Notes under the pieces: generated by a model
Told to the model about the DNA's origin: nothing
Database searches by the model: none
Seen by the model: the letters and a program-made list of their open reading frames with translations, nothing else
Assembly (NCBI GenBank): GCA_029339195.1
Contig: JAPTJF010000053.1
Span: 156,009-220,008 of the forward strand
Reading direction: 5' to 3'
Length of the DNA: 64,000 nt
From: Micractinium sp. NFX-FRZ
Taxonomy: Eukaryota > Chlorophyta > Trebouxiophyceae > Chlorellales > Chlorellaceae
Shown: positions 1 to 64,000 of the stretch, one piece after another
How the letters are laid out: the number at the start of each line of letters is the position of its first letter
How positions within the stretch are numbered: position 1 is the stretch's first letter
Program-made: the position numbers and the translations under genes

Positions 1-3000
1 CCTCGGCGTGAGAGCCAGTACGATGCCGATGCCGGCGGCAGCGGCCCGGAATGCTCCCAATACTGGCCAGAGGGCAGCCGAGGCGGGGCAGCCCGGCAGG
101 GCGGGGGCCAGGGCGGCGAAGACACCGGGGCGGTGCAGCCCCTGCCTGCCGACGCCACGTCAGCAGTCAACCTGCAGTCGATCGAGCGAGCGGACGCTGC
201 CGGGCGGCTGTGGGAGGGGGCCAGCGGCATGGGAGCTGCAGATGACGGCGGCAGCAGTAGCTCTCCTGGTTCAAGCCCCCGCCGGCAGAGGTCCCAGCAA
301 CAGGATCGTGACAATACACAGGGGGCTGCTGCTGCCGAGGCTGCCGAGGCTGGCTCGTTGCCGCACGTCAGCATGTACCAGCGCAACCTTGGGGCGGCTG
401 CCGGCGGGCTGCAGCAGGCGGCTGACAGGGCGCAGCAGTCGCCGGGGCGGCGGGTGGGGGAGCTGATGCGGCAGAAGATACAGGAGGAGGGGTGGCAGCT
501 GATTGTGCAGGGGCACAGGTGGGGAAATTAATTATTGGAAAGGTGGCAGCTGATGATGCAGGGGCACATGAGGACATGGTTCATGCCACTTATGCCAGGG
601 GCCGCTGAGAGGTCTGTGGGTGCTGCCGCCCTGACGTTGCTGGAGCAGTACCCCACTCCATTGCCTCCCTCCCCTGCCCCGCTGCTCCCCTGCCGCCTGC
701 TGCCCCGCAGCCTGGGAGCGGGTGCAGCCGCCCTGGTGTCCCTCAAGCTTCTGGAGCACTACCCTGGCCTGAACTGTATCGCCTACAGCTGCCCAGGTCA
801 GAGACAGCGGGCTGGTGTGTGCTGATGGGGCCAGCTTGCCTGCCATTCCAGCCAGGCCGGTTGCCAGTCGCGCATCCGCCGCTGCGGCACAAGTCATGCT
901 TCTGCTCCTGCTGCTCCGAGGTTCCTCTTGAACCCGGCCTGGCTGTGAGAGCTGCCTTGTGCTACAAGCCTCGGCAGGCGGGCTGGTGCACAGACACCCA
1001 CCCCTTCAGCCCCAGCTTATTTGTAAGCATCTGCCTTGTTGGTTGACGCCCCCTGTGGCTGCAGGCGGGTTGGCGAGCAAGAACCTGGCACGCGCCATGG
1101 CTTCCTTCACCACCACCGGTGAGCCTGATGTACAGGTGCTTGCATGGTCTACAGTATGTGTCAATATGTTTCTCATCAACACCTTGCGTATGGCACGCAT
1201 GCATGTGTCCTTATGGCATCCTGCGCCAGCACTGGTAGCTCCCACCTCTGGTCCCTGCCCTGCCTCTGCCCATCTTGCCATGCCATGCCGCGTCCATGCA
1301 ATGCCACGGGGTCTGCCAGCTCCCATGCCCCGGATGGAAATGCCAGGTGCCTGCTCACCATCCCACCCGCTGCCCACTGCCCTGCCTGCTGCCCCGCCCC
1401 ACTGTATGCCCCTCGCTGGCCTTGCGCCTGCAGTGGTGGTGGGCAAGGACGCGGTGTGCCGTGCCACGGTGGGCAACCTGGCCCGCTTGATGGACGAAAT
1501 GGTGACGGCGCTGGCGCGGTGCCGGCAGCCCAAGCTCAAGGTAAGCCAGGGAAGTGAGGCCTTAGTGGCGGCTGGTGGATTCAGGGACAGCGGCAGGAGG
1601 GGTAGTTTGCCTGAAGAACGAAATGGTGACGGCGGTGGCGCACTGCAGGCAGTGCAAGCTCAAGGTGAGATGGCATTGGAGGCGCTGCTCAGGGTTGATG
1701 TGGGGGTGGGGGCAGGGACGGGGGCGGGAGGGATGGCGTGTCCTGGTGGACGAAATGATGATGGCGATGGCCCGCTGCAGCCAGTCGAAGTTCAAGTTGA
1801 GTGGGCGGTTTATGGCTGGGGCAGGCAGCCCCTCCTGCGGGCCCTCACCACATGCCAGCAATCTGTGTCAAGAGTCTGCCCTGCCTCCCTGCCGCCAACC
1901 CCACACCACATGCACCATCCTCATTCCCGTGCTTGCGTCGACCCCTGGCCCAGGTGCTCTTCTGGCCCTGGTGGCGCCGGCGGCGGGCCCACTTCCGCAA
2001 GCTCTTCTGGGACTACGACCAGATCCCGCCCGAGTCGCTGGAGGTACTGCAGCGGTACTACGAAAGCAGGTGGGTGCCAGGCGGTGCTGGGCGGGGGATC
2101 ACGGTGGCGGGACCAGATCCCGCCCGAGTCGCTGGAGGTACTGCAGCGGTACTACGAGAGCAGGTGGGCGCCAGGCGGTGCTGGGCGGGGGATCACGGTG
2201 GCGGGACCAGATCCCGCCCGAGTCGCTGGAGGTACTGCAGCGGTACTACGAGAGCAGGTGGGCGCCAGGCGGTGCTGGGCGGGGGATCACGAAGGTGGGG
2301 TTTAGGCGTGGAGGAGAAGGAGGCCTGCAATTGGTTGGATGCTGCTGGTGTGCTGGCAGCAGAGCCTGCCCCCTGCCGTCAATATTAGTCCACCCTGTCT
2401 CGACCCCTTGCTCTGCCCCGCCCTGCCCCACCCCAAACTCACGCCCCTCCCCACCTGTCGTGTGCAGGGCGCGCATCGGGCAGCCGCTGAGCATGTACCC
2501 GCCCGGCCGCATCATCTTCCTGCGCCCCATCAAGACGCGGGTGGCCAAGGAGTGGGATGCTGTGTGGATACAACCAGAGGACATCATCGGTGAGAGTGGC
2601 AGGGGCGCACGCTGTGCCTGCTGTGCGGCGCACGCTGTGCCGCGCTCTGGCTGCCAGTCGCTGTCAGAGTGCGGCAGCACAACATGTTCCCAATAGCCCA
2701 CGTGTGCCGGCAAGCGCAGAGGCAGCTAAGCAGGCCTGCCAGCCGCACTACAACCCATCCCCTTCCTCTTCACTCCTTGCCACCCTTGCCCACGCCTGGG
2801 CCCCCCGCTGTGCAGCCGAGGGCCTGCTCGTCTCCCCACACATGCTGCGGGACCACCTGTGCGGTACCGCCTACGAGGCCCTCACCGCCGCAGCTGCCCG
2901 CATGAAGGACTTGGAGAATGGGGCGCCCAGCGCACTCTCTGGGACGGCAGATGCACGCCCTTACATGGCCCGCCTGCTGCGCCAGCAGCGCGCCGCCGCG

Positions 3001-3108
3001 CGCCGCGAGCACCGCCTGCGTCAGGAGGCTGCCCGGCGGCGTGCGCGCCAGCGCATCAGGGCGCAGCGCACTTCCAGCCTGCAGGACGTGTTGATAGAGG
3101 CCTCCTAA
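1..3108 (+). CDS. Class-3 lipase, diacylglycerol lipase (DAGL)-like, 3' part
   Basis: Probable sn1-specific diacylglycerol lipase, a serine hydrolase that cuts an acyl chain from diacylglycerol. The model has exons 1-518 (open from the window edge, so the start lies outside), 711-796, 1065-1118, 1434-1540, 1954-2069, 2468-2589 and 2816-3108, and phases match at every join. The nucleophile motif GHSLGAG is formed across the first intron: the serine codon is AG at the end of exon 1 plus C at the start of exon 2. It continues into YSCPGGLASKNLA, the catalytic-Asp motif VVVGKDAVCRATVGNL and a C-terminal SPHMLRDH segment that should carry the catalytic His. All three triad positions are therefore present. 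The first 300 bases are low-complexity (Gly, Ser, Ala, Gln) and probably an algal insertion. The tail after residue RPYMARLL is Arg-rich. Three introns carry repeats of the neighbouring exon edges. Family call is firm; the exact substrate is inferred. Confidence 0.85.
1493..1801 (+). repeat. Three copies of the GKD-exon 3' edge inside the lipase intron
   Basis: The true exon end (1493-1540, donor at 1541) recurs at about 1617-1670 with a usable GT donor at 1665, and again at about 1748-1801, where the donor GT has become TT. The copies translate as NEMVTAVAHCRQCKLK and DEMMMAMARCSQSKFK beside the real DEMVTALARCRQPKLK. Confidence 0.9.
2017..2298 (+). repeat. 94-bp tandem repeat, three copies, spanning an exon end and its donor site
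   Basis: Copies begin at 2017, 2111 and 2205, an exact 94-bp spacing. Each contains the last 53 bases of the lipase exon ending at 2069 plus the first 41 bases of the following intron, including the GTGGG donor. Copies 2 and 3 are nearly identical to each other. Because 94 is not a multiple of three, only the first donor keeps the lipase frame. Confidence 0.95.
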
Positions 3109-3751
3109 TACAGAGGGGGCGCGATTTTCTGTTGTTGGGGTGGGGATACTTTTGGAGAGGGAAAACATAGTTGCCTTCCGTCCAGAAGAAGGGAGGAGAG
3201 CTTGGGCGGGCGTGCTGGCTACTGCATGCGTTTGCAATCCCCATCTGCTTCATTGGCCTGCAACCTGTTGAGAGCCTGCAGTGGCTGTTGTGTCCTTACT
3301 TTGTAATCAGTTGCTTAAACACTCTTGGAATGCATGAAACCAATGCGCACACGGTGGATGAGAAAACGCAGGTACAGGCGGGAATGGTGCGCGTCCCGGA
3401 GGCAGCTGACCACAATAGTGCATACCAGGCCTTGCGGCGGCCCAGCGGCGGCCATCCGACATGCGTGGCCCAGGATGGTTTGAGGCTCACAGTCAGGCCA
3501 AGGAGATAGCAGGGGCAGGAAGCAAAGCAGCAAACACACAGATGAAATCGAACAGTTTGGATGGGAAAAAGTGGGGCACTGACTGTGAGGCAACATAGCC
3601 TGCCAAGAAAGCACCGCCACGTATTGATCGGCAACGGTCTGTGAAGTGTCAGCGGCTGCAATGGCAACAAGATCAGGCATCATGGAGCGGCCGCTGGATT
3701 TTGAAAGATCATACTCTAAGACAACGTCTCCACGCACCGACGCCGCAGGGT
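3109..3751. other. Convergent 3' region between lipase and pantothenate synthetase
   Basis: I find no coding exon here. It holds the 3' untranslated regions of two genes that meet tail to tail. A TGTAA motif, the usual green-algal polyadenylation signal, lies at 3302-3306, about 195 bases after the lipase stop. I saw no clear TGTAA on the minus strand for the opposing gene. Confidence 0.6.
3302..3306 (+). terminator. Putative TGTAA polyadenylation signal of the lipase gene
   Basis: A TGTAA pentamer lies about 195 bases downstream of the stop at 3108. This motif is the established polyadenylation signal of green algae; its use here is inferred from position only. Confidence 0.5.
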
Positions 3752-6363
3752 TTAGGCATCGAAATCGACGTTGTCAATGAGGCGCACCTTGCCGAAAAAG
3801 GCTGCCACCGCAATGAGCACCACCTGCCCCCGCACATCGCCCGCCAGCGGCCGCAGGCTGGTGGCGCTCACCACCTCCACATAATCCACCCGCCCGCCCC
3901 CCGCTGCCACCGCCTCGGCCACCTGGCGCTGCAGTGTCGCCGCATCGCTGACGGCGCCGACGGTGGCTGCCTGCCGAGCGTCTGCCAGCGCTCGGGAGAT
4001 GCACACGCAGCGCTGGCGGTCCTCCGGTGTCAGCATTGCGTTGCGGCTGCAGGCAGCGAGCAAGGCAGGGATGGGGTGTCAAAAGCACCTTGCGGCTGAG
4101 GTGGCGAGGAACGGCAAGGGGGGCAGGGAGGAAGGGGCACACTGTGTGAGCGGGGGGCCCAACTGTGGGTAGCGCTCAGGGGGCTTGGTGTGCGGTTAGC
4201 AAGACTGGCATCCAGGCAGGCAGGGTGGGTACCCCAGAAACGTGGCTATCCCAAACAGTTTGCCGTCCCACCAGCAAGCTTCTCAGTGCTGCCACCACGC
4301 CCGCCCGCCGCCACCCCAACTAGCACCCACCTGCTCATGGCCAGGCCGTCAGCTTCCCGCTGGATCGGCATGCCCACAACCTGCAGGCGGTGGCAACATG
4401 GGGCGAAAGCAGGTAGGTGGCAGCACGGGCGGGGGTGAGAAGCATGCTGTGGGCAGTTGGGGCCGCCACTTGCGCCCTGGCTCGCGGGAACTGCGGGCAT
4501 GCTGCACACGCTGCCCGCCCGCCTCACCCCCACCGCCATGCCCAGGTCGCCTTCCCTCACCTGTCCCCCACCACCACATGTCTCCCTCCGAGACCCCAGT
4601 TGTGTCTTTGGTGCCGCCCCACTTGACCTGCACGCCTTCCCCTGCAGCGCCAGTCTGGCAATGCGCCGCACAGCCTGCTGCGCCGTCAAGCCCTCTACCT
4701 CTGCTGAACACCACTCCCAGCCCAGACAGCCAGACACATTGCAACACACTCTTGCTGCTGAGTGCCTCCCTCACCTCCACCGCCATGTCCAGGTCCCGCA
4801 CCATGCGCTGGATCACCCGCCACTGCTGGTAGTCCTTGCGCCCAAAGAACGCGGCGTCCGGCTCCACAATGTGAAACAGCTTGGTGACCACCTGCACAGC
4901 AAAATAGGACGTGCATGGAATTAAAACATGTGGAACAGCTTGGTGACCACCTGCAGGGCAGAATGTGCAATCATGCATCAACTTAAACATGTTGAGCAGC
5001 TGGGTGACAGCATGCAAAGCAACTTATCAGGTACAGCAATCGCAAAAGTTTGAGCACCAGGAGTTCAGGACGAAAGCCTGAGAACCACCGCTGCAATGCC
5101 ACCACGCGCCAGCACCGCAGCACCCCAGCAGCACCGCGGCCGTAGCACACAGTGGCAGGCGCACCGTGCACACGCCTCGGAAGAAGTGTGGGCGGCTCTT
5201 GGCGCACAGCCCCTGAACCAGGTGGAAGACAACGGAGTAAAGCACAACCCGAAGAGTTGCGTACTGTACAGGAGTTAACCGGAGGGAAGATGCAGCATGC
5301 AAGGCAAGAGGCACCAGGGCTAGCATACCTGAGAGAGGTGATCCACAGACACCCAGGTTTCGTGGGCGTCGGGATCCGCTGCCTCGCTGGCACCCACCAC
5401 CATGCCTGCATCCGCTGCCGGCGTGCTGCCGCCGCTGCCGCTGCTGGTGGTATGGTAGAGGGTGGCGGGCATGAAGACGGCGACGCAGCCGGCCTCGGCA
5501 AGCTTCCGCAGGTCTTCCTCCTGAGCACAGCAGGCACAGCAGCAGGGTCAGCAGGGTCAGCAGGCTGGAAAGGAGATTAGAAGCTTTTATCGCTGAGCGT
5601 AGCTTGCATCCGTCTTCTCCATTTAGTAATGCAGCAGGCACAGCAGCGACCGCAGCAGGCGGGGAGGGGTAGAAGGTGAATAGACCCCAGGATATGATCA
5701 AAACAGTGTGCATCACCTCGCTGCGTGGGTACACCCCAAAGTCTTCATTTTTGGAGAACTGCGTGGGGTTGACGTATATGGAGGCAACAACCACATCGCA
5801 CCGCTCCCTGCTTCGCGGATACACATTCAACACAGCACAGGATAGCATGGTCAAGGGGAGAGGGTGGGACGTCCCGAGAGGCGCCACACAGCCGGCACGG
5901 GCGGCAGCAGTGGAGCATCAGGATCAGTCTGGATAGAGGGGGCGCGGCAGGAGCAATATGCGCCGAGGTCGAACAGCAGTGCCTTTGGCTACAGCAAACT
6001 GCGGACAGCAACTGGCCATTTGTTGGTAGACAGTGTGGCAGGGAGTGGGTGGCAGCGGCGGCGGCGGCAGCGCCGGCGGCAGCGGCACAACACTCGGCAG
6101 TCGGCGCGTTCACCTTGCGGCATCAACCAAAGAGATGTGGCCGTCGTGCAGGAAGCCCTGCAGCGTGCAGGGGGGCGCAATGAGCGCCACCCCAAAGGCC
6201 ACCAGTCCCCCGGCGCCCGCGACGATCGGCCGCTGCATTGCATGCATCTTATTTCATTGATTACCATGGTGGGCACAAAGCCGATCGTCTTGCCCTGCCG
6301 CCGCTGCTCTCGGCTAAATTTACGCATGTCCGCAGCGCTGCGGAAGACCTGTGGGAGCTCCAT
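3752..6363 (-). CDS. panC: Pantothenate synthetase (pantoate--beta-alanine ligase)
   Basis: Makes pantothenate (vitamin B5) from pantoate, beta-alanine and ATP, the last step before the coenzyme A pathway. Eight exons, 5' to 3': 6363-6265, 6157-6114, 5807-5717, 5520-5329, 5212-5165, 4891-4775, 4380-4331, 4046-3752, giving 311 residues, the usual plant length. The start [10 protein letters not shown] aligns with the cytosolic plant enzymes and has no transit peptide. Signatures in order: KTIGFVPTM joined to GFLHDGH (the HxGH ATP-binding motif), [23 protein letters not shown], the [20 protein letters not shown] block, then ADGLAMSSRN ending at the last splice join. An acidic, Gly/Ser-rich insertion (residues about 100-125, [16 protein letters not shown]) replaces the shorter loop before the ETW motif. 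It faces the phosphatase-chimera gene head to head across about 1.1 kb. Introns before and after exon 6 carry copies of its edges. Confidence 0.93.
4926..5019 (-). repeat. Two copies of the panC exon-6 acceptor edge in the upstream intron
   Basis: The exon-6 start (acceptor plus VVTKLFHIV codons, about 4867-4900) is repeated at about 4926-4958, with its CTGCAG acceptor kept, and less well at about 4986-5019. All three lie on the same strand in a row. Confidence 0.85.
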
Positions 6364-20600: not shown

Positions 20601-23600
20601 CTAGCTCTCATTTGCCGCCTCCTGCGACTGCCCCGTGCTGCCTTCCTGCCGCTGCGGCTGCCCCTGCCGCCGCTGGCGCAGGCGCTCAACCACCTCCACA
20701 GGCAGGGCAAATGCTGGGTCGATGGGTGCCAGGCCGGGGCGCCCCATCAGGCTGAGGCCCGCGATCCCAAAGAAGGTGTGGTACACATCCACCTGTGTGT
20801 GGGGGGGAAGGGTGGGGAGATGAGTGGGCAGGCGGGCAGGTGAGAATGAGAAGCAGGTGGGGTGGACAAGCGGGGGTGGCATGAGGTGGGCAGGCAGGTG
20901 GGCAGGTTTGGAAGGGAGCATGTGTTGTGCGGGGCCACCGCCTGCGGTGCGGGTGGCAGGAGTGTAGGTGGGCAGGCAGGAGAGCAGGAGAGCAAGCTCA
21001 AGGGGCCGGGTCAGTGGCTTGCAGCTGCACCGTCTGCCGCTACTCTCCCCTTGCCGCCGTCCTGCTCCAACCATGCCCCACCGCACCACACCTGCCCCCA
21101 ACAAGGCCCCACCTGGTCCTCCGGCCTATCCGAGATGCCCCCGCCCTCCTCGTCCTGCACAGCCAAGCACAGGCACAGGCGGGAATGGCATCAGCGATTC
21201 AGCTCAAACAGTCAGCAAGCCCGCAAGAGAGCAGACCAGGGACAGCAGGCCAAGCTTGAATCCACATGATTCCACAAAGAGAAACGCCAGGCCCCTGCCC
21301 GCCCTGTTGCCTGCCTAAGGGCGCCTGTACCACTCCCTTGCCACCTGGTGCCAGCAGTCGAAGATGAAGCCAGAGTGGCTCTCCCACCGCCGCAACCCAT
21401 GCATCTACCCACAAGCCATGGTTGCCCATCCCAACCCCACTGCCATCTGGCAGACGAGGACGGAGTCTGTGTCCCTCCCTCCACCGCCACCTCACCCACA
21501 GGGCCTGCCAAGCTCCGCCCCCCACCTGCCCCCCTTGCCTGGCAGTCCAGTATGAAGTCTGTGAGCGCTGCCTGGTCAATCCAGTGCAGGCGGCCCAGGA
21601 TGGAGAGGGCTGAGAGGCACCACCACGAGTAGCACACGTCCTGCAGGCACAGGCAGTGAGCCAACAGGCAGGCAACTTGGCTGCATGCAGCACCTGGTTG
21701 GGCATAGCCCTACTCAGAAGACCTCCTGGCCCCCTGGAGGAGGCCTCTGGAGGAGGCCAGGAGTAGCACACACCCTGCGGGCATTGATACAGCCAGCAGG
21801 CAAACAGCTTGGCCGCCGGCAGCAACGGATGCTTGCACGCAGACGAGATGATGATCACCGCGGCTGCTGCGGCTGGGCCAATGATGAGGCACATGCTCAT
21901 GCCTGCCCACCTGCAGCTTCTCTGGCCGCCCGTTGAGCCCGCCGCTCTTGGTCTGCCGCTCGCACAGCCTGCACATCAGCCCAGATGGTTGGTTAATTGG
22001 ACGGTGTTCAATCAAGGTATGGCCCTGGGTCCAGCGAGGTATAGAGAGACATAGAGGGGCAAGGCAGAGTGAGAGGGGCGCAGCTGGGAGAGGCTCAGAG
22101 AGTGGCTCAGCAATGACAGCACACAAGTCGTGCCTCAAGTGCACCCACCCCACCTGCTCGTCGGCATCACGAGAGGCAGCACTGCGTAAGCACATCCTGC
22201 CACACCCCTGCTCGGCTGCCGCGCTTCCCAGCACTGCCACCTCCCTTGCCCTCGGGTGTGCCCCATCCCCGCCTTCAGCAACACCCTGCCCCCCACATGT
22301 CTCCCACCACTGTTTGCCCGACTCACCACCAGCAGAGCAGGTCTCGGTCCGCCAGGTCCAGCCGCCCCGCAATGTCCAGCGCCGCCACACACGTGAACAC
22401 CTGCCCCGCGTGCGACTCATTGCCTGTAAGGCCAAGCGGTGGGTGGGCGGGGAGCACGTGCGGAGCACGGGACATGCAACTGAACAGCTGCCCAGCGTGC
22501 GAACCGTTGCCTGCAAGGGCAAGTGGTAGGTGGGGGGCACGTGCGGAGCAGCCAAACCGGACATCAAACAAGTGACACCCAAACCCCATCTGAACACAAT
22601 GCATCACCCACCACCCACTGGGACCCACCTGGTGTGCAGCCAAAGCCGCCGTCAAAGTTCTTGCATGCCGCCACGTAGGCGGCCGCAGCACCCACGTCCA
22701 CCGCGTCCAGCCTGTCGATCAACCACAGCGCGCACAGCGCGCAGTAGGAGAACCGCGTGTCCGTCTCGCCCCACTCATCCCCCCAGAAAGAGCCGTCGGG
22801 CTGCTGCAGCCCGGCAATGTCTGCAGGGGCGCGGGCCAGGTGAAGGAGGGCGGGTTGGATGGATGCAGGGGCAATGGGGGGTTGGGACAGGTGGGCCAGC
22901 GGCAGGGCACTGGGAGGGGTGTGGGCGGCAGTGTGTACAACTCACGACGAAACAACTGACAACATTCACTGTGCAGGGGAGGGCACGCACGCCGGCCTGC
23001 ACCCCGCATCTACAATTGGTTGCCGCACCCAACCCAGGCAGCAGGCAGCAGGCAGCGGAACTCACAGCTCGCCACAGCGTCTGCGTCCACCGCCGCCAGC
23101 TGGTCGCAGAGAGCCAGGATTTGCAGAGCTGAGAGCGTGTAGAGCAGGTGTGGGTCGTGCCGCTCGCTGCCGCCAAAGCCGCCGCCGGGAAGCTGGCAGC
23201 GCAGCACCCACGCCACAATGGCGCCTCCGTCCAGCGCATCCCGCCGCCCCAGCAGGTGCAACGCTGTCAGGCCCCAGTACACGCCGCTCAGCCGGAAGTG
23301 CTCGGTGGCAAAGTACTCGAAGCTGTCCTTGTTCTGTGGACAGGGAGCAGGAGTGGCCGGCTGTGAGGGTTGCAGGTGAACACGGCAGCAGGCGACGGCG
23401 GCGGCGGCGGGGCAGAAGGCGCAGAGACAGCGGGACGCAGATGATCACCGCTTGGATTCAGAGGTGCGCGTGCACCCCTGTAGAAATCCATAGCGGCAGA
23501 AAAGAGCATGGCCGAGTGGAAGGTTGTGATCGGGGCGCCGGCAGCAACAGACGACGCTTCTAGTTATTCTACAGTTAGTCACAATCCCGGATGATGTCAG

Positions 23601-27581: not shown

Positions 27582-27651
27582 CGATGACCACAATTGAGGA
27601 GTGCCTGTGTGCAGAGGTTCAGTATGCATGATTGGTTGTACGTCGACGCAA

Positions 27652-27656
27652 ATGTA
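27652..27656 (+). terminator. Putative TGTAA polyadenylation signal of the SPOUT1-like gene
   Basis: TGTAA lies about 70 bases after the stop codon at 27581, at the usual distance for green-algal genes. Confidence 0.55.
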
Positions 27657-28508: not shown

Positions 28509-28542
28509 CAGTGCGCCCCCGCGCCGGCGCGGGGGCGCACTG
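28509..28542. repeat. 34-bp perfect palindrome
   Basis: A perfect inverted repeat with no spacer, almost all G and C at the centre (arms CAGTGCGCCCCCGCGCC and its complement). It lies about 325 bp upstream of the start codon of paralogue A. The corresponding part of the second unit does not carry it. Confidence 0.95.
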
Positions 28543-32181: not shown

Positions 32182-32223
<42 letters not shown>

Positions 32224-40000: not shown

Positions 40001-42075
40001 CTGAGCTGCATCCGACTGCCTTTGCTCTGCTCACGTCACTTCCCTCCCGCTTCTTCTCTCGACGCCCGCTCGCCTCTCTTGTCCCCTGAACTTTCACGCC
40101 CTCGCCCCTCCTGCGACCGTCCCGCCAACCCACCGTATGTTCCTCAAACTGCTCACGCTGTGCGCAGCCTGAGAGATAAGCTCTGCATCCCCCTGCCCAC
40201 CCCTCCCCTAACCCCCCTAACCCCCTCCCCCCAACCGCTCCCGCTGCGTGTGCGCTGCAGGTCAGGCGATGGAGCCCGAGACTCAGAAAAAGATTGTGGA
40301 CCACTTGGAGCAGGACAGCATGGTGGGTGACGTGGCGGGTGACGTGGCGGGTGATGTGGCGGGGTGGCGGGGTGCTCAGCATGGCGGGCGGGTGGGTGAT
40401 GCGGTGGGATGGAGGGTAGCTGGGTGCTCGCTTGGGCTTGCGCGTGATGGTCGGGTGGGGGGCGTGCCTGGGTGTGAGTGGGAGACAGCCCTGAGCCAGA
40501 ACAACTTGGCGGGTGGGGCGGGGTGGATGGGTGGGGAGCCATCTAGTCGCGCTTCCCAAGTGGCAGGCGTACGCTTGCACTCACGCTTCCTTGCACTCCG
40601 CCACTGCCGCCCACGCCTGCTGTTGCGCCTCCTGTGCCCCCAGCAGGTCCTGCATGTGGCAGCCCCACGCTTGCACTGCCTCTTCCCTGTACTCTGCCAC
40701 TGACACCCACGTGTCCTGCCCCAGCTATGCCAGCATCCCCAACCACCACCAACCTATCCTCTTGTGCCTCCCGTGCCCCACCCCCCTCAGGTCCTCAAAG
40801 TGGTGGACCCCAAGAGCGAGGAGATGGGGGATGGCGTGTACAGGTGGGCATGATGAGAAAGGGATTGCTGTTTTGCCAGTGGCGGCGGGTGTGGGTGTGG
40901 GTGTGGGTGTGGTGTGGATAGGACGGGGGGCTGGTCATGCCGGGGGTCAAGGATTTGGATGCATTGGTGCAGCAGTGAACACTGCTACTCCAACCGTAGC
41001 ACCCCACCACACCTCTGACCCTGTGCCATCCGCAGCGCAGGCTCAAGGCTGAGCCTCCCGACATGAGCCGCCGCAACCTGGCCCATCCCCCTGCAACACC
41101 CTGTATCACCCCGCAGGTTCAAGGCTGCAATTTACTGCAGCCTTCACCATCAATCGCCACACCTGATCTCAACCCCTACACCCTGTGTCACCTTGCAGGT
41201 TCAAGGCTGAGATCCAGTGGAGCGGGGAGCACGTGGTGCAAAAGTACCTGGCGGCGCGGGGGCGGGAGGCGCTGTACCGCCAGCTGCGCGCGGCCGCCTG
41301 CGGCTCGGTGCCGGTGCAGGCGGGGGAGGCGGAGGCGGGGCGCGCCAGCGAGCTGCTGGTGCGGGAGGATGCCATCGACTTTGCGATGATGGACTTTGGT
41401 GAGCACTACCACGTGTTCTCAAACACGCCGCAACTGTTTGAATCATGTACTGTACTGTGCAGCTGTGGTGTGCACAGCGGGCATGACATGGACCCCATCT
41501 GGCACGCGAAGCGCTCCTGGCCAATCCCCATAGCGTGTCCCTATGCCGTTGTGTGCAAGCGAGGGTGTGATGCGCACGTGTGGGCATTGAGGCTCTCCTG
41601 CTTGAGAGGGGAACTGCCATGCCATGTCAACCACTGGTTTCTTCCTCGCCCTTTGCTTCCTGCAGGCAAGGGCGTGATCCGCACGGTGGGCACCGAGATC
41701 GACCGGCTGGAGGGCGAGCTGCGCAAGCTGGTGCCCGGGCTGCGGTACGTGGACCTGGAAACCGACAAGGGCGCCAGCGCGCGCAGCGGCGAGGGCAGCA
41801 TGCTGGGCAGCATGGATGGCGGCGGCGAGGCGGCGGCGGCCGCCGCCATCGAGGCGATGCGCCAGGCGGGGGTGAGCGGTGAGCCCTCCTCTGTGCTGGC
41901 GGCGCAGCTGAGGCAAACGGCGCGAGCGCCTGCCATGGATTTGAGCGCCATGCGAGAGCTGTATGAGGGGGCGGCAAGGGATGGCCAGGCTGGCGACCTT
42001 GGCGGCGATGAGTTTCCCGGCGGTGACAAGCTTGGCGGCGGCGAGCTTGGCGTCGGCAGCAAGCCTGCGGCATAG
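37034..42075 (+). CDS. Cation diffusion facilitator, ZnT9 (SLC30A9)-like zinc transporter
   Basis: Membrane carrier of the cation diffusion family; ZnT9 relatives move zinc across the mitochondrial membrane. Exons: 37034-37710, 37954-38102, 38456-38557, 38931-39062, 39440-39616, 40261-40322, 40791-40843, 41199-41398, 41666-42075; 653 residues. The first about 150 residues are Ser/Arg/Ala/Gln-rich, consistent with an organelle targeting peptide; a later in-frame ATG at 37136 (MTQRFRSSMPM) may be the real start. The transporter begins near VNTAVVVNGAIFIAKMLTWM and has the metal-site segment EGLHSAADVANQ, then YGFHKEKYVYALIS, a helix ending in VHGVTSWFDPHPLE, SSVAEGYSLWVA, RDPTTAAILWEDGGAVAG, HWDAMGSIAVGLLMG and the soluble tail RFKAEIQWSG with IRTVGTEIDRLEGELRKL. 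The C-terminus carries a low-complexity Gly/Asp-rich extension. All blocks match ZnT9 order. Confidence 0.9.
39289..39428 (+). repeat. 51-bp tandem repeat next to a splice acceptor
   Basis: Nearly three copies, starting at 39289, 39340 and 39391, of a pyrimidine-rich unit that begins TGACGTGGCCCTCCCACCTG. The last copy ends just before the acceptor at 39438-39439, so it supplies the polypyrimidine tract. Confidence 0.92.
41029..41140 (+). repeat. Two copies of ZnT9-like exon-8 acceptor edge in the upstream intron
   Basis: The true edge (acceptor before 41199, codons for FKAEIQWS) is preceded by copies at about 41033-41060 and 41110-41140. The nearer copy keeps its CGCAG acceptor and would read FKAAIYCS. 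Confidence 0.9.
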
Positions 42076-43067: not shown

Positions 43068-46000
43068 CTACACTTGTCCCGCTGCGCCGCTGTTGGAGGC
43101 GACCCGGTGTATGGCCCCTCCACCCTCTGCTAAGCTGCTCTTCAGGGGCACCAGCTCGGGTGAGCTGCCGTTGCCGCTGGCCGTCAGGCTGATCACCCGC
43201 GGCTGCACGCTCTCCCTGAACTTTTGGATCTTGGTGTGGCTGCAGGCAGGCAGGCAGGGAGGGGTGGAGGGTCCATGATGGTGTGTTGGAGAGGGAAGCT
43301 GGGGTGATGAGGGCAGGGCAAGTTGAAGGCGCGGCTGCGGCAAGCGTTGAGGACGCGGGGGCATGCAGCGAGAGGGTGGTGTGGAGTGTAGGGCAAGGGA
43401 GGCGGGCGTCTGGGTGCAAAGCCAGACCTAGCACTGCCTGCCTGCTCTGCAACCTCTCTTCAACCGACCCAGCACCCGCATGCACCTGCTGCCACCCGCG
43501 CGTGCATGGTACGGCCCCATAGGGCAAGCACTGCGCTGCAATATAGCACAGCAATGCACCTGCCGGCACCAGCTCAGCATCGGCTGCCGTGACCGCACAC
43601 CCAAGCACCTGTACATGGCAAAGCCGGTCATGGCCAGCACCACCCCCAACGTCATCTTGATGGTGAACTCCTTGCCCTCCCCCAGCAGCATGGCTGACAG
43701 CACCAGCAGCCCAACAATCTTGACCTGCAAGAGGGAGGACACACAGAGGAGGCACGAGTAAAAAATGACTGCAAAAGGCGGACCAGGTGCGGGGAATAGC
43801 CGCAGCATGGCACGCAGCACCAGCGGGCAGATGATCTGGGCCATCCGTGGGGGGGTCGGCAAAGGTAGGAGCGGCGCTGAAGCGAGATGAAGGCGCAGGG
43901 CAAGCAGCAGCTGTTGCAGGCGTGTGTGGGCGTGGTGGGTGGTTGGGGGCAAAACCAACGCCTGGGGCAGTGACAATACGCAAGGCCGGGCACAGCTGCA
44001 CCAGCCTTCACCCAGGCGGCAAGCAGCTGTGCTGGTCAGTGTGCTCCTGCCTGCCCCGCCGGCCGGTCAGCATGCACAGCGCCCACCCACGCACCTCTCC
44101 CAGCACAGTGGTGGTCACAGCGCTGGTCCTCTTGATCATGAGGCTGTGGATCTGCACAGGTGGCAGGGCAGCAGCGCAGGGGCAGCAGCATGGGCAGTGT
44201 AGGTGATTGGGCCAGGGGAGAAGAGCAGGGGTGCGGCCCATGTGGTCTGCTCTGCAGCAGAGCAGCATGGCACCGCTCATAGCGGACCGAATGCCTCGCT
44301 CACCTTTGCTTTGGCCAAGCATGAGACCAGGCGCCCACGCACCCATTCCCCGCGGAAGCCCCCTCCCTGCTGCCTCGCCCTTCCCTTCCTCCTCCCTCGC
44401 TCCACCCACCCCGTCCACCCACCCACCATGTTGTAGCAGACGGCATTGATGGAGGAGACGAGGATGATCATGGCCACGCCGTTGGAGTGGGCGGGCAGGT
44501 ACTCCAGGAAGTGGGTGCGCTGCAGGGCTCAGGGTGGCAGGGGGGTGGGGAGTGCTGAGATGACTGCAGAAACGGGTGCGCTGCAGGGCGGTGAAGGCTC
44601 ATACGTTTTGTTTCAGGGCTGTCAGGGCAGGGCACAGGCAGCGGGAAAATACTGCACACGCCCGCAAGTTCCCCGCCTCGCATGAGTCGACGTGCGGTTG
44701 CAGCCCCGCTGCTGCGCCACGAGTTTGTCGCCCCAGCACACACCTTGCACGCCAAGCACCAAGAGAGGCGGCCTCACCCCCCTGGAACACCCCCTCCTCT
44801 ACGACACCTCCACGCGCAAACTTGTACCCCACAGGGCCTCACCCACCCAGCACCCACCTGCGATGTACGGGTCATACACCACGCAACCTGCGCTGTGCCT
44901 GCGAGTCGTACATCCAAGAGCAGGGCGCCCAGCTGCACGCACGGCTGCATCCCTGGCAGACGCCCCTGGGGCCCACCACCCTGGGGACCCCCCCCCGCCA
45001 GGTCCTTGCCATACCCCCTGGGCGCCCAGCACCCACCTCGTACATCAAGAAGAAGGGCGCCAGGCACAGTAGGCTGACTGGCGCAGTGTAAAAAGTGAGC
45101 CGCACCACATCCAGCTTCTCGCTGCAGCCAAAAGCGGAGCACAGGCTAGAGGGTTGGACGCCAGGGACCGGTGTGTGTGAACGGGCAGTGTGAATTTCAC
45201 CACCACGCATCCAGCTTCCCACGCATCCAGCTTCCCTCCGCACACCGACATGGCAGGGCCCGCGGCAGCGCCAGGAGCAGCATCCACAAGCGGCAGGCCA
45301 GCGACAGGGGGCAGCCGGAGCGCGGTAGGGCTGGCAGCGCATCACATCAGAATCGACTTGCCGTCACCCCTCACGCACAGCAAACCACACCCCCTCTGGT
45401 AGTTGTGCTTCATGCCTGGCTTGCCCTCCAACCTTCCCATGGTGCACATGTGCCTGCCCGCCCCAGCCACGCCAATGATGCCAGCACACCACAACCCTGA
45501 GAAACGCGCCGCTCTGCCGCTGCACGCCACCACTCCCAGCTGCACGCAACTGCGCACACCTTCCCATGCCAAACCCAACCTCAGAAGCCACAGCGCACAG
45601 CGCACCTGAGGACCTTGCCGCTAAACGTCATCATCGCGCCGTTGCACACCGTGCCCACCAAGCAGAAGCCGATGGCATACGGCTTGCCCGTGACCGTGCC
45701 CTGCCACACCGCCAGCATCACACCAACGGTCAGCGTGATCAGAGCGCCCAGCTCCTGGCCGCTGGGGTAGCGGGACTCAACCACAATCGCCAGCAGGCAG
45801 GTCACCACTGGGATGGCAGACCTGCAGGGCGCGCGGGCGGTGGCAGGACGGGCGTACGGGTTGGGCAGCAGGCAGGCGGGCAGGGTGCACATGCAGCATG
45901 TATGCGTGTAGCGCTGGCATGCACGGCAGGATGTGCCACCGGCCTGCTCCAATGGCATCTGCCTTTGCGTGTCCGCATTGGTGAGCCTCAGTCGCAGCCG

Positions 46001-50049: not shown

Positions 50050-50148
50050 CATGCAGCAAAGCCTGCACGATCGCACCGCCTTGCTTGCCCATTCAAGCAT
50101 GCACGCAACCAGAGAAAGTAAAGGTGGGAGCGATAGTCAGGAAGACTT

Positions 50149-51887: not shown

Positions 51888-51927
<40 letters not shown>

Positions 51928-52957
51928 CATGCAGGCAGGCATGCAGGCAGGCAGGGAGGCAGGCAGGCAGCAGGCCTGTGGCCAAGTGGCGCGCTGCCTG
52001 GCGGACAGGAGTGGGGCCAGCGGGTGGGCCTGGGGCGAGGCTGCAGACAGGAAGTCAGGTCAACGGGAAGTGTTGCTCACCAGAGTGCCCGTCTCCTGGA
52101 TCAGCCTGTCACGGGCATTGGTCACCGACTTGAGGAAGCAGTCGACCAACTGCTTCTTTGGAGGACAAGTGAGGGCGTGGTCAAACGGCAACGTCCCCGC
52201 ACTGCGGCACTCCTCCACGTAACCGTACAGGACCAGATGCAGCCAGCGGCCAATGAAGACCGTGTCGCAGACGCCGTGGATTGTCTTCATCTGCAGCCAA
52301 CCGAGCATGGGAGGAGCAGCAGGGAGGTCAGGTACCGCGCAACGAGTGGCGGGCGGCGGGCGGCGGGCGGCAGCTTCCAGCTGTGGACTGCAGCCGGCGA
52401 TGGACGGCGTGCTGCCGCCCAGTAATGCGGCAAACGAAAGAAAAGAATTATCGCGCCGAGCCAGCTTCCGGCAAAGCTACACCACAGGTCTCCCCGTGTG
52501 AGCACTGGCCAGCAGGCGAGGAACAGAGGGCTGGTGACCGCAACATGGGATGTCTGCTCGCAAATTGTGACATGTACCGCGCACAACACTGAACAGCGGC
52601 GTGTGCATGCAAGGCCCCACCCTGTCCCTGCCTGCTGGGCACCACCGTGGTGACCCACCTGTAGGCTGGTCCCCCGGAGTGGCGCAAATCCTTGCGGGCG
52701 GGGGCAAATTTTACAATTGGAATAGCAAACACGAGCAGTTCTGTCCAGAAATAGCAGAAAACGAGCGACCGTGTTAACTCTAGCACCTGCCCCGCAGCTG
52801 CAGCTGTGTACTGCGGCACCAGCTTCCCCTGTGAGCGGGTGGGAGCAAGCACATGCACAGAACCTGTGCAGGGCAGCGCCAGAGCACGGAAAGGTTGCCA
52901 TGCTTTGCAGGCTTCTGGCCAACAAGCTACCAACACATCAAGGCAGTGTTCCTGCAT
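50149..52957 (-). CDS. Unknown multi-pass membrane protein with Ala-rich C-terminal region (5' end unresolved)
   Basis: I do not recognise the family. Supported exons on the minus strand: 50941-50149, 51718-51297 and about 52290-52081. A probable upstream exon at about 52957-52664 encodes MQEHCLDVLVACWPEA and later a hydrophobic helix, SLVFCYFWTELLVFAIPIV, but its phase does not join directly to the next exon, so one exon is missing or wrong. The 51718-51297 exon encodes four hydrophobic helices (around AHVRMAFAAISLFCSVLQL, TTSFACFLSAVVSLLIAALL and FGLALSAATAAVLLFTLF). The last exon begins with a conserved-looking soluble part (VPVAALHRLEPFLAFNHLYD, RFSADSSIKHYFWKYLARVA), then about 140 residues of Ala-rich helix with regular Glu, Lys and Arg, probably a coiled coil. 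Location and function are unknown. Confidence 0.6.
51836..51976 (+). repeat. GGCA tetranucleotide repeat in an intron
   Basis: About 30 near-perfect GGCA units with occasional GGTGGCA or CATGCA interruptions, in the intron between 51718 and 52081 of the membrane-protein gene. Confidence 0.95.
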
Positions 52958-59147: not shown

Positions 59148-62100
59148 ATGTCAAAGAAGACGGTCCTCGTTGTTGGCGGGGGCTTTGCGGGCCTGTCCGC
59201 GGGCAACCAGCTGCGCGGCTCCAACTTCGATGTCGTGCTCCTGGACCCCAAGAGGTGGGAGCATGGCATTCCGCGGGCCCCGCTGCCCCGCCGCCCTCTT
59301 TGCAGGGCTCCCGCCCTGCCTCCGCCTGCCGCCTGCCGCCGCCGCCGCCGCGCTGTGCCCAAGCCCTTCTCAGCCTTCTCCCTCTCCCCTCCCTTCTTCT
59401 CCCTCTCTTCCGCCCTCCTGCAGCTTCTTTGAGTACATCCCCGTCTCCCCGCACAACCTCGTGGTCCCTGCCCATGCGCCCCGCACCCTGGTTGACTATC
59501 CGGCAGGCCTGCACCCAAAGCAGGGCCTGCTGGTGGGGCTGACCACAGATGGCACCAAGGGGCGCGCCACACTGCAGGTGAGGCCATGGTGGACTTATTT
59601 CTGCGGTCTTGACCCGCAGCGAGTGGTGGCGCCCAGGTGGCGCCCAGGTGGCTGCCCGCACATGTGCCTGCCGGCTGGGCTGTGTTGCCCCACCCCACCT
59701 GCTGTGCCCGTTCTCTGCCCGCCACCAGCCATTCTCGTCATTCTCCTGTTCTTTTCTGCAGGGCGGCGAGGAGGTGGATTTTGACTACTGCCTGCTGGCC
59801 ACTGGATCCACCTACCCCTCGGGCGTCAAGCCGCCGGCCGACCGCCTCACCCACCGGGCAGACCGGCTGAAGGAGTTTTCAGACATTGGGGAAAAGGTGT
59901 GGTGCGTTTCTGTTTGTTGGAAGGAACGAACAAGAGAGAGCTGCCTTTCGGTGATTGACAGAGGAGTGCATGCGCAGCGGGCAGGCGGCAAGGCCCGCGC
60001 CTGCAGAGCCGCTGCGGGCAGCAGGCAGGCAGCCGCCTTGACCATGTGAACCTGCGCCCCCTGCGTGTGCGTGCGTGCACACGCCCGTTCGCCCTGGACC
60101 TGCTCCCCCACCACCCATTGCCGCCTGCCACGAGCACCGCAAGTTGCCGCAAACGTATTGAATGGTTGAAAGTCTCCCGTCGTTGTTCGCCCCTCTGCTG
60201 CAGATTGCCGCTGCAAAGACGGTGGTCGTGGTTGGCGGCGGGTCCGTGGGCGTGGAGGCGGCCTCCGAAGTGGCAGAGGCGTACCCCGATAAGAAGGTGG
60301 GTGGTACATTGGGAGGGTGGGTCAGTTGGCTAACAGTGGTGGGGGCCAACTTGCAAAGCGTTTGGCAGCTCTGTGCATCAGCATCGTCTGCCGGGCCACC
60401 TGCCTGTGCCGCTCCTCGACTGCCCCCAGGTGCCTCCCCCTCTCCCACCTGTCGGCCACGTCTGCTCCTTTGCCTTTCCTCTATCGCCTCCCCTCTCCGC
60501 TCATCTCGCCGTCCCCATTCTTTTACGCTCGCCAGCGCTCCCTGCGCTCACCTCCCGCTCTTTCTGCCGCCCTGCCGCCCGCCCGGGGGTATCCCGATCT
60601 CCTCTGGGGGCCTGCCGGAGCACGCGGCCCCCAAATCCCACAATGTGCCCGCCGGTTTCGCCCCTGGCCTACCTCCCCTTTGATCACATTATGAACTTCT
60701 GTGCGTCTGCGCACCCTTGCCTGCAGGTGATCCTCATCTCCTCTGGAGGCCTGCTGGAGCGGATGGACCCCAAAGCCCAGGAGTTTGGCGCCGCCTGGCT
60801 GAAGGAGCACGGAGTGGAGGTGCTGCTGGGGGAGCGCATCAGGTGCTGCTGGGAGGTGTGAAGAAGGCTTACCCTGGGTCACAGGGCACGTTTGGTTGGG
60901 GGAGCGCATCAGGTGGCGGGGGTTGGGAGATGTGGGGGAAGTGAGGGTCTGGGGGGGTGAGGGACAGTGGCATGGCGCTGCCTGGCTCACAGGCGCGGTG
61001 TGGTGGGGCAGCGCATCAGGTAAGGCTGGGAGGTTGGAAGCTGAGGGACGGTGGTATTATGGCGCAACCTGGGTCAAAGGGCGTGATGTGGTGGGGGGGC
61101 TCATTACGTGGGGGGTGGGAGATGTGGGGGAGGTTGACGTGGGTGGGAGTCAGTGGGCGAGGGTGGAGAGGGGAAGATGCAAAGCAGGCGCAACGGCACG
61201 GATGGATGTAAAGAGGGCGGGCGAGTCAGGCATTGGTGCACACCCAGTGCCGCCGTCTTCAACCGCCGCCGTGCGGCTCCTCTTGCCTCTATCTCTTGAC
61301 CTCTGTGCTCTGCTACTCCCCCCGCCTTTGTGGTGTGCAGCGACTGGGGCGGCCTTGGTGACGGGCTGCCCGGGCCCGCCACTTTGAAGACTGCCAGCGG
61401 GCGCACGATTGAGGGGGATTTGGTGATCAAGTGTGTGGGTGTGAAGCCGGCCACCGCGCTGTTTGCCAGCTCACTGGGCGGCGGCCAGCTGGCGCCCAAC
61501 GGCTCGATTGCAGTGGAGCCTTCGCTGCAGGTGCGTGCTTGCCCTCACGCCTGGCTAGCCCTCTGGATTTGCTTTTCTGTTTGCGGAATGCCCTGTTAAG
61601 GCGTGGGAATTGCGGCGCGCCTTTTTATTGAGGCGTGGGGCGTGCCTTGCTGGCTGGATCGAGTGTGGAGCAGCGCCGCGGTGCCCCCACTGCGCCCTCG
61701 CATGTGTTGCATTGCCGCCCTGGGGCGTTGCATTTCTGCCCGCCGCCCCAGCCCCATCCGGCTGTGGCCCCGCCCACGCTGCAGGTCAAGGGCTGGCGCA
61801 ATGTGTTTGCCTGCGGCGACGTCTCAAACACGCCCGAAGAGAAGACGGCGGCATATGCTGGCGTGGCAGGTGCTGCTGCTTGCTGTTGGTTGCTGGCGCT
61901 GCTGCCGCTGTCGCTGCCCTCGCTGCCGATGCCGCCGCTGCCGCCTGCACTGCCATACTTGTGCTGCTGCCGCTGCTTCCTGCAAGTGCAAGCCGCAGTG
62001 GCCGCTCTCGTCCCAGGTACCAGCGCTCTCCACCGCCTGCTCACCTGTGCCATTGCTGCCTGCCATGCCCTGCTCCCTCCCTGCTGCAGCCGTGGTGGCA

Positions 62101-63383
62101 GCCGACAACATCTTGGCTCTGGATGCCGGGAAGGAGCTGAAGACGTACCCGGAGGGTGAGTGCACATTGTTTTCTGTCTTCCAGTGTCTCATCCACTTTC
62201 TTGAGTAGATTGTGGTCTAAAGGGTGAAAACCACGGAGTGAAGACTTGACCGGAGGGTGGGACAGAGGCATGAAGCAGGCTGCGCTGTGGTTGCGCTGTG
62301 GTTGAATGTCGATGCCAGCAGGTCGCAGCGGCCTGGCAGGCTGGCAGGCGAGTTGTCAAGGCTGGCAGTCCATCGCTGCGTGCAGTGCGCCCGCCTGCCC
62401 CTCCTCCTCCTCCCTGTCTCCGTTTTCGCCAAGCAAGCCAACATCTCAACAGCTGCTGCACCACGCCACCTGCTGCCATGCTTTTTGCAGGCACGTTTGG
62501 TGGCGTCATGCCCCCCATGGCGGGTGGCTTCTCTCTGGGCACCAAGGTTGGGGCCTTTCAGATGGGCAGCGATGTGCAAATGGGCGCCGCGCCAGCCAAG
62601 ATTAAGGTGGGTGCTGGTAGGGCATCATGGGAGGGGAATTGAGTTTGATGTCACACAGATTGGCGCCAGGCCGGCCAAGATCAAGGTGGGTGCTGCTTGC
62701 CTGTTTGGCATTTCTGAATTTCAAGGTTACAGTACGTGTTTTTCGCAGCAGCAAATCACAGACCCGTGGTTGCGACACAGATCCCTGGTGAGCATCATGG
62801 GAGGGACAGCGGAGTTGGTGCCACGCAAATGGGCGCTGGTCCGGCCAAGAGCAAGCTGGGCAGGGTGCAGCTTAGGGGAGAGCTTGCGGGGGAGGGGAGC
62901 AATCAATTCAAGGGGCAGGCAGGCGCAGGGACGAGTGGCGGTCCTTGCAAGTGGCAAGCATGTGAGCAGGGGAGGCGGCATCTGGGGGCAGCTCCCTCTT
63001 CGCTTGACATTCCTGCCCGAACAGCAGCCAGCTTTCCGCTCTTCTTCTGCTGCTCCCGGTGTACACCGGTGTACACCGGTGTACATATGTGACCCATGCA
63101 CACCCTCCTGCCCAGCCAACCATGCATCCACCCGCGCACCGCCCACCTTGCCAACACCTCTGTCCCCTCCCTCCCCATCACATACACACGGCTCAACCTG
63201 CAGGGAGTGATCATGTGGCTGTTCCTCAGGATCGCGGGTGGCAGCCGCTTCTGGAGCTGGGTGTACGGCAACATGCGCGGCATGATGATCGGCGGTCTCA
63301 CAAAAGAGGGCAAAAAGGCGGCCGCCGCCAAGGCCGCTGCTGCTGACGCGGGCGCACCGGCTGTGGCTCCCGCCGCCGCCTGA
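59148..63383 (+). CDS. AIFM2/FSP1-like FAD-dependent oxidoreductase
   Basis: Flavoprotein of the type-II NADH dehydrogenase-like fold. AIFM2/FSP1 relatives reduce quinones with NAD(P)H and protect lipids; that role is inferred here. Exons: 59148-59254, 59424-59577, 59762-59896, 60204-60296, 60727-60842, 61341-61530, 61785-61869, 62090-62155, 62491-62606, 63204-63383; 413 residues. FAD-binding motif VLVVGGGFAGLSAG at the N-terminus, then FFEYIPVSPHN, DYCLLATGSTYPS, the NAD(P)-binding motif VVVVGGGSVGVEAASE at about 137-152, VILISSGG and the second FAD motif NVFACGDVSNTPEEKTAAYA. A hydrophobic C-terminal segment (GVIMWLFLRIAGG) and an Ala/Lys tail could anchor it to a membrane. No transit peptide is evident. 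The introns after exons 4, 5 and 9 contain copies of exon edges. Confidence 0.9.
60590..61030 (+). repeat. Copies of FSP1-like exon-5 start and end in flanking introns
   Basis: Exon-5 start (60727, VILISSGGLLERMDPKAQEF) is echoed at about 60593-60650 as GIPISSGGLPEHAAPKSHNV. Exon-5 end (GERIR plus donor, about 60830-60860) is echoed at about 60890-60920 and 60997-61030, each with an AGGT donor. Confidence 0.9.
62565..62870 (+). repeat. Three copies of FSP1-like exon-9 end plus intron start
   Basis: The exon-9 end and the first bases of the intron (about 62570-62640) recur at about 62647-62705, with donor AAGGTGGGT kept, and at about 62790-62870, with the donor lost. Confidence 0.88.
63058..63087. 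repeat. Short palindromic tandem GTGTACACCG
   Basis: Three overlapping units of the self-complementary GTGTACAC, at 10-bp spacing, in the last FSP1-like intron. Confidence 0.9.
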
Positions 63384-63713: not shown

Positions 63714-63750
63714 TGCTGACATCAGCAAGCTGGAGCTCCAGCCGCGCCGC

Positions 63751-63824
63751 TTATGCCAGTGCCAGCTGCTGCTGCTGCGCCTCCTCGTCCTCCTCTGCTG
63801 CTGGGGCGCCCTCGCCTCGCTCTA
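63751..63824 (-). CDS. Possible C-terminal exon of a minus-strand gene (partial)
   Basis: Reading the minus strand toward a TAA at 63751-63753 gives an acidic, Gln-rich tail (RGEGAPAAEEDEEAQQQQLALA). An AG boundary at about 63824, after a TTGA repeat, could be its acceptor. A minus-strand TGTAA occurs about 180 bases past the stop. There is no homology support, and it may be chance in GC-rich sequence. Confidence 0.25.
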
Positions 63825-64000
63825 TCAATCAATCAATCAATTACATTTGAAGTCCACGGGGAGGCAGCAGCGGTCTCATGGGACAGAGCAGGGGGAGAGC
63901 AATGGAGTGTGTAGCTTTGATGGAGGAACTGTGCGAGGCGGGCGCTGGCTGGCTGGGCCAGCCAGGCCGCAGGGGTTGAGATAGAGGGTGGGAAGAGGTC

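What the first reader, a model, noticed from the sequence alone, without database searches (positions are those of the whole stretch)
1..64000. Exon-edge echoes: introns repeatedly carry copies of their own flanking exon edges with splice sites
Across at least eight unrelated genes (lipase, panC, RABGGTB, SPOUT1-like, FtsJ-type, ZnT9-like, TPT-type transporter, FSP1-like), an intron contains one to three imperfect direct copies of 25-60 bases covering the end of the adjoining exon, usually with its donor or acceptor. The copies are always on the same strand and near the real border, and differ from gene to gene, so this is not one mobile repeat. Several still translate to a conservatively changed version of the exon edge. 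This points to a process that keeps duplicating splice borders, giving intron growth, spare splice sites or alternative exon ends. I cannot check whether it has been reported in chlorellacean genomes.
Basis: partly seen in the sequence, partly recalled or inferred. Interest (0 to 1): 0.92.

Follow-up and report, generated by a model that had tools for sequence, protein, structure and literature searches.

The report
Copied exon edges inside algal introns
In this green alga many introns hold a worn copy of the edge of their own neighbouring exon, splice site included, which looks like the scar of small local DNA duplications that lengthen introns by about 100 bases at a time.

Summary
In 314 kb (window plus 25 sampled 10-kb stretches of the same 66-Mb genome) the 50 exonic bases beside the donor match their own intron in 25 of 455 cases, length-matched foreign introns in 2 of 4550; acceptor side 25 of 470 against 1 of 4700; reverse complements 0 of 455 and 1 of 470.

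Copies lie 70-175 bases apart in 43 of 47 events. Of 40 events examined, 13 still align as tandem units through the intron part, 27 keep little more than the exon edge. Introns with an echo are longer by about the offset: median 326, minus offset 220, others 223. Echoes decay neutrally, without coding constraint or frame preference. No AGGT-type intron-gain signature was seen.

Best reading: small local tandem duplications, probably break-repair products, that survive where they straddle a splice border and lengthen the intron. Against a purely neutral account, border events exceed a simulation 2.8-5.4 fold over intron-only ones, and edge-only copies are commoner than simulated. That excess is the interesting, unexplained part.

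The parts
1485..1545 (+). lipase-like gene: exon edge and donor (source copy)
   Evidence: direct repeats 1485/1609 and 1488/1744
1609..1669 (+). first echo of the lipase exon edge, donor GT kept
   Evidence: 84% over 61 nt to 1485-1545; HMM called part of it exonic
1744..1796 (+). second echo of the same edge, donor GT changed to TT
   Evidence: 79% over 53 nt to 1488-1540
2017..2291 (+). lipase-like gene: 94-bp unit (53 nt exon edge + donor + 41 nt intron) in 2.9 tandem copies
   Evidence: TRF period 94, 98% matches; copies 95-97%; the youngest full-unit case
4769..4795 (-). panC exon edge and donor (source copy); echo at 4522-4548
   Evidence: 93% over 27 nt, offset 247
4869..5016 (-). panC acceptor and exon start in three copies about 59 nt apart; exon copy is the lowest-coordinate one
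   Evidence: offset 59, 77%; sequence read; the protein aligns without an insertion there
21623..21692 (-). RABGGTB acceptor and exon start; echo at 21757-21824
   Evidence: 74%, offset 134
22394..22467 (-). RABGGTB acceptor and exon start; echo at 22481-22550
   Evidence: 81%, offset 87; the HMM added 2 residues from the echo that the Symbiochloris relative lacks
25043..25111 (+). SPOUT1-like exon edge and donor; echo at 25128-25193, further decayed copy near 25232-25270
   Evidence: 87%, offset 85
25471..25522 (+). SPOUT1-like acceptor and exon start; echo at 25356-25407 in the same intron
   Evidence: 85%, offset 115
33798..33824 (-). FtsJ-type acceptor and exon start; echo at 33869-33895
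   Evidence: 27 of 27 identical, offset 71, flanks not alike
34806..34825 (-). FtsJ-type exon edge and donor; echo at 34699-34718
   Evidence: 20 of 20 identical, offset 107; short, so weaker evidence
41178..41209 (+). ZnT9-like acceptor and exon start (21 nt intron, 11 nt exon); echo at 41096-41127
   Evidence: 91%, offset 82
43725..45036 (-). TPT-type transporter: introns 43725-44094 (acceptor-side match) and 44520-45036 (donor-side match)
   Evidence: edge scores 31 and 28; weak
60730..60779 (+). FSP1-like exon start; echo at 60591-60640
   Evidence: 80%, offset 139
60819..61134 (+). FSP1-like exon edge with diverged repeated units around one border
   Evidence: pairs 60819/60997 and 60873/60981, 68-76%
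62577..62616 (+). FSP1-like exon edge and donor; echoes at 62656-62695 and within 62785-62860
   Evidence: 85% offset 79; 75% offset 171 between the two echoes

Best explanation
The echoes are scars of small local tandem duplications (unit mostly 70-175 bp) that arise in many places of this genome, most likely by error-prone repair of nicks or staggered breaks. Inside an exon such a duplication disrupts the coding sequence and is lost. Where the unit spans a donor or acceptor, one copy of the exon edge with its splice site falls inside the intron, the original site stays in use, and the intron is longer by one unit. The stray edge then decays neutrally. Because the true exon and its splice site are constrained, exon and echo stay recognisable after the duplicated intron parts have blurred. 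Shown here: direct orientation, own-border specificity, unit size, full-unit cases, neutral decay, extra intron length of about one unit. Inferred: the repair mechanism, and that the original splice site is the one used. Not explained: why border-spanning events exceed intron-only ones about 3-5 fold and why edge-only copies are so common.
For: Direct 76, inverted 5. Own against foreign introns 25/455 vs 2/4550 and 25/470 vs 1/4700. 13 of 40 events align through 22 nt or more of intron; 94-bp array at 98%. Intron-only duplications have the same offsets: 7 of 8 at 70-175. Intron length 326 with echo, 220 after subtracting the offset, 223 for the others (MWU p 2e-7 before, 0.39 after). Neutral decay. 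Residual homology of the spacer in 7 of 28 testable events (z>1.64). A simulation of tandem duplication plus decay yields edge-only remnants in 28-39% of detected events. The only run of two or more telomere repeats in 314 kb, five TTTAGGG units at L021 4118-4152, lies between an echo pair and overlaps the copy boundary by 3 bases: one case, suggestive of break repair.
Against: Border events exceed the neutral simulation: 47 border, 7 intron-only, 1 intergenic observed against 568:459:220 expected (without intergenic p 6e-7; looser filter 49, 14, 2, p 2e-4). Edge-only events are 27 of 40 against 28-39% simulated, and 16 of 22 (5 of the 40 plus the 2017 array being full-unit) at exon identity 0.85 or more against 17-31%. 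In full-unit events intron parts are still 71-91% alike, so fast intron decay is not an obvious excuse. Two of 28 spacers score clearly below controls (z < -2). The length comparison can be inflated because long introns have more room for a detectable copy.
Confidence: 0.6

Rival explanations
1. Borders are true hot spots: a process tied to splicing or transcription (breaks at spliceosome-loaded borders, R-loops, or repair templated by pre-mRNA) copies exon edges preferentially, ending near the splice site by mechanism.
For: Border excess 5.4 and 2.8 fold over intron-only events after simulation; exon edges 38/429 against interior intron tiles 19/763; 27 of 40 copies end within 21 nt of the border on the intron side; spacers mostly unlike their flanks (6 and 8 of 46 above the control's 95th percentile).
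Against: Intron-only events with the same offsets exist. The native splice site is constrained, which by itself makes alignments stop near it. Simulated tandem units give many edge-only remnants too. Donor and acceptor sides are hit about equally (24 and 22), which a 5'-exon intermediate would not predict.
Confidence: 0.2
2. Staggered-break repair with filler: a 25-70 nt overhang is filled in on both sides and unrelated filler is inserted, giving copy-filler-copy, so the unlike spacer is new sequence.
For: Copy-spacer-copy shape in 27 of 40 events; telomere repeats in one spacer; near-identical short copies with unlike flanks, such as 33798/33869.
Against: Edge-only and full-unit events share one offset range, 71-261 and 77-171, which independent overhang and filler lengths would not give. 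Residual spacer homology in 7 of 28. Three informative whole-genome searches found no other source for a spacer, though a spacer could be untemplated.
Confidence: 0.1
3. Intron gain by tandem duplication of exonic AGGT (the tandem genomic duplication model): the echoes are the exon-derived ends of newly made introns.
For: Offsets start near the smallest intron lengths. A few exon-exon pairs could be read so, for example L007 3208/3371, where GC...AG of 163 nt would restore the frame (by my reading).
Against: Exact-register similarity of exon end to intron 3' end: 0 of 533 at 18 of 30 matches or more (controls 2 of 5146); exon start to intron 5' end 0 of 546 (controls 2 of 5267). Echo-bearing introns go on beyond the echo.
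Confidence: 0.04
4. The echoes are functional alternative exon ends or spare splice sites kept by selection.
For: 34 of 46 keep the splice dinucleotide, acceptors mostly (list).
Against: Neutral expectation for 34 of 46 (p 0.87); no coding constraint and frame-breaking gaps; no frame preference of offsets (16 of 46).
Confidence: 0.04
5. Assembly or gene-model artefact.
For: The 94-bp array is near identical, so its copy number could be an assembly matter. The HMM sometimes calls an echo exonic.
Against: Copies are diverged, median identity 83% of 46. Foreign introns and reverse complements give almost nothing. Two genes are backed by protein alignments.
Confidence: 0.02

Closest known systems
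Small tandem duplications from repair of staggered breaks (PMC8355091, passages read; rice patch-mediated and plant paired-nick studies recalled, not read)
   Same: Short direct duplications in place, no inverted ones; break repair as a plausible source.
   Different: That paper studies induced breaks in mouse and human cells and speaks of insertions mostly below 100 bp; here units of 70-175 bp are seen as old scars at splice borders of an alga. The repair route was not tested here.
Intron gain by tandem genomic duplication (PMC3443670 and PMC2891723, passages read; PMC4974935, listing only)
   Same: Tandem duplication in genes next to splice-site-like sequence.
   Different: There a duplicated exonic AGGT makes a new intron of the unit's length. 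Here existing introns get longer and the exact-register signature is absent.
[quoted passage not shown]
   Same: Direct repeats around inserted sequence.
   Different: There short direct repeats flank a whole new intron; here 25-100 nt copies lie inside an existing intron and on its exon edge.
Introners (PMC9860276, start of abstract in a listing; otherwise recalled)
   Same: Recurrent, genome-wide remodelling of introns in single-celled eukaryotes.
   Different: Introners are copies of one element in many genes; each echo here copies its own exon, and three echo regions searched match only themselves in the genome.

Membership tests
Small local tandem duplications | Direct, not inverted, orientation at short distance | tested here: met
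   76 direct, 5 inverted events
Small local tandem duplications | Copies cover the whole unit between them (head to tail) | tested here: inconclusive
   13 of 40 align through 22 nt or more of intron; 27 only at the exon edge; 7 of 28 spacers show residual homology
Small local tandem duplications | Adds one unit of length to the host sequence | tested here: met
   Intron length 326 with echo, 220 after subtraction, 223 in others; indirect, no outgroup
Small local tandem duplications | Made by break or nick repair | not testable with these tools
   One telomere-repeat filler is only a hint
Intron gain by AGGT tandem duplication | Intron ends match flanking exons in exact register | tested here: not met
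   0 of 533 and 0 of 546 at 18/30 matches or more; controls 2/5146 and 2/5267
Introners or other mobile repeat | Shared sequence among many genes | tested here: not met
   Foreign introns 2/4550 and 1/4700; self-match only. One search gave 54 matches; all but the self-match lie outside the echo pair
Alternative exons | Coding constraint on the copy | tested here: not met
   Codon positions 48/52/51, synonymous 31/105 against 0.27
Alternative exons | Use in transcripts | not testable with these tools
   No RNA data held

The most novel reading that the evidence does not exclude
Splice borders in this alga are true hot spots of a splicing- or transcription-coupled duplication process that copies about 50 nt of exon edge with its splice site to a place roughly 100 nt away inside the intron, so that introns grow stepwise and are seeded with ready-made spare splice sites, with scars on the order of 10,000 genome-wide.
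Probability: 0.2. Interest if true: 0.85.

Novelty: new variant of a known kind. Interest (0 to 1): 0.62.

Why it matters
Intron lengthening is usually put down to mobile elements (recalled). This genome shows another countable route: local duplications across splice borders that add about 100 nt and leave a readable scar. The 46 events tied to introns in 314 kb extrapolate to about 9,700 in 66 Mb if the sample is representative. Because the source exon is constrained, each echo is an internal clock, so rates of duplication, decay and decoy splice-site loss become measurable. Echoes also mislead gene finders: my HMM put echo peptides into the lipase-like, RABGGTB and FSP1-like models (for RABGGTB shown by alignment).

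Tried and rejected
Two-step splicing rescue (the echo needs an exon ending in AG or starting in GT): 15/24 against a background of 0.56 and 5/22 against 0.17, no enrichment. Hypermutating copying: the spectrum shows only higher change at A and T. Spacers as captured mobile DNA: self-match only; one search had many hits outside the echo pair; short spacer hits within the sample are weak (output partly cut). AGGT intron gain. Decay alone as cause of edge-only copies: simulated, falls short. An HMM-independent splice-motif test was only mildly positive (81 events, mean tail 0.38, KS p 3e-4). An early tile scan without a strict complexity filter showed direct hits in intron tiles too and was replaced. 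Left out of the border share: 19 (stricter) or 21 (looser) exon-exon events, some of them echoes called exonic by the HMM. Sister-strain comparison: no algal collection was open to me. Literature: ten searches of open PMC text listed no title or shown abstract start that describes border-spanning duplications as a route of intron growth; subscription papers were not covered.
Full report
WHAT WAS CHECKED. The window is bases 156009-220008 of contig 53 of a 66.07-Mb assembly in 838 contigs, with 62-67% GC. Among the 120 listed of 3440 protein matches, the alga closest in identity to its RABGGTB is Symbiochloris irregularis at 71%. This fits a trebouxiophyte green alga; 'chlorellacean' is unproved. 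I took 20 stretches of 10 kb and later 5 more, so 314 kb in all.

GENE MODELS. A self-trained HMM settled on a CAG|GTGAG-like donor and a CTGCAG|G-like acceptor and gave 651 complete introns, median 227 nt. Pfam supports the eight genes of the finding. Protein alignments support exon borders in RABGGTB and PanC. In RABGGTB the HMM added two residues from an echo that the relative lacks. The stretch 27582-33698 got no gene model and was counted as intergenic.

THE PHENOMENON. Self-BLAST of the window gave many short-offset direct repeats; its 16 inverted rows were palindromes or matches more than 15 kb apart. On 314 kb with complexity filtering there are 76 direct and 5 inverted events at offsets below 1500. 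By class: 47 exon edge to intron, 19 exon-exon, 8 intron-intron, 2 intergenic. Of the 47, 43 have offsets of 70-175. At score 24: 42 of 455 against 29 of 4550, and 43 of 470 against 34 of 4700, so roughly 8-9% of tested borders carry a trace. Only edges of at least 30 nt and of sufficient complexity were tested. Hits are uneven: 12 of 118 introns in the window, 4 of 26 in L013, none in 10 of the 25 stretches.

ANATOMY. At an intermediate filter 46 of 49 edge-intron events could be tied to a predicted intron: 24 donor and 22 acceptor, in 44 of 651 introns (three had no modelled intron). Median offset is 106.5 and median identity 83%. Of 40 events examined base by base in the first 264 kb, 13 align through 22 nt or more of intron and 27 only over the exon edge and up to 21 nt of intron. 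For 46 pairs with a spacer, the spacer exceeded the 95th percentile of controls against what follows in 6 and against what precedes in 8; by an anchored alignment 7 of 28 had z above 1.64 and 2 had z below -2. Intron-only duplications have the same offsets, 7 of 8 at 70-175.

FATE OF THE ECHO. In the 27 edge-only events mismatches fall evenly on codon positions (48, 52, 51), 31 of 105 single-change codons are synonymous against 0.27 expected, and 13 of 15 gaps are not multiples of three. By simple mapping 34 of 46 echoes keep GT/GC or AG, as neutral decay predicts; at least three of the 12 called lost (L003 3933, L005 1137, L014 1859) are mapping slips at gaps, by my reading. Introns with an echo have median length 326; subtracting the offset gives 220, like the others (223). 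That is the best evidence for growth by one unit, with the caveat that long introns also leave more room for a visible copy.

IS IT JUST SURVIVORSHIP? I simulated random tandem duplications with neutral decay, with an indel rate taken from a 1.4-kb duplicate in the window (intron divergence 0.059, exon 0.021, 11 small gaps), and ran the same detection. Expected: 568 border, 459 intron-only, 220 intergenic; 68 further border units showed under 10 nt of exon and were set aside, which favours the null. Observed at offsets 50-300: 47, 7, 1 at the stricter and 49, 14, 2 at the looser filter. The excess over intron-only is 5.4 and 2.8 fold, p 6e-7 and 2e-4. A tile test agrees: 38 of 429 exon edges against 19 of 763 interior intron tiles. 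Edge-only remnants also exceed the simulated share: 27 of 40 against 28-39%. So survivorship explains the kind of pattern but not its full size. Intron turnover faster than calibrated, gene-model bias, exon-to-echo conversion or a real border preference could fill the gap; I could not tell these apart.

MECHANISM. Direct orientation, a narrow unit size shared with intron-only events and full-unit young cases point to small tandem duplications. The passages I read of PMC8355091 describe such duplications at breaks with complementary 3' overhangs, through fill-in by CST-guided Pol alpha-primase; CST also acts in telomere fill-in. The one run of two or more telomere repeats in my 314 kb, five TTTAGGG units at L021 4118-4152, lies between an echo pair and overlaps the copy boundary by three bases. 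That is a single case.

KNOWN RELATIVES. The passages I read of PMC3443670 and PMC2891723 describe intron gain by tandem duplication of AGGT segments and by break repair with direct repeats. The exact-register signature of the former is absent here. Ten searches of open PMC text showed no report of border-spanning duplications lengthening introns; I judged from titles and abstract starts.

VERDICT. Ordinary parts: small tandem duplications and neutral decay. New part: their build-up across splice borders in about 7% of introns at plain detection, and an excess at borders that a neutral model does not reach.

Noticed in passing
window 7714-9150 and 14757-16188: A 1.4-kb duplicate 7 kb apart, 93.8% identical, within one HMM gene model whose protein looks like a purple acid phosphatase (my reading, not searched). 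Introns differ by 5.9%, exons by 2.1%.
   Followed up: partly
window 28898-30165 and 31262-32547: A diverged tandem duplication of about 2.3 kb spacing (75-85% in pieces) in a 6-kb stretch where the HMM predicts no gene.
   Followed up: no
window 28509-28542, 29495-29524, 63060-63085: Perfect palindromes of 34, 30 and 26 nt.
   Followed up: no
L021 4118-4152: Five telomere-type TTTAGGG units inside an intron, at the boundary of an exon-edge copy; the only run of two or more units in the 314 kb.
   Followed up: partly
window 16109-16485: 33-nt minisatellite, 11.5 copies, in a predicted intron.
   Followed up: no
window 51834-51975: Run of the tetranucleotide CAGG, about 36 units, in a predicted intron of a minus-strand gene.
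   Followed up: no
L013 and L032, 10 kb each: Echo density is very uneven: 4 of 26 introns against 0 of 28 at score 30; cause unknown.
   Followed up: no
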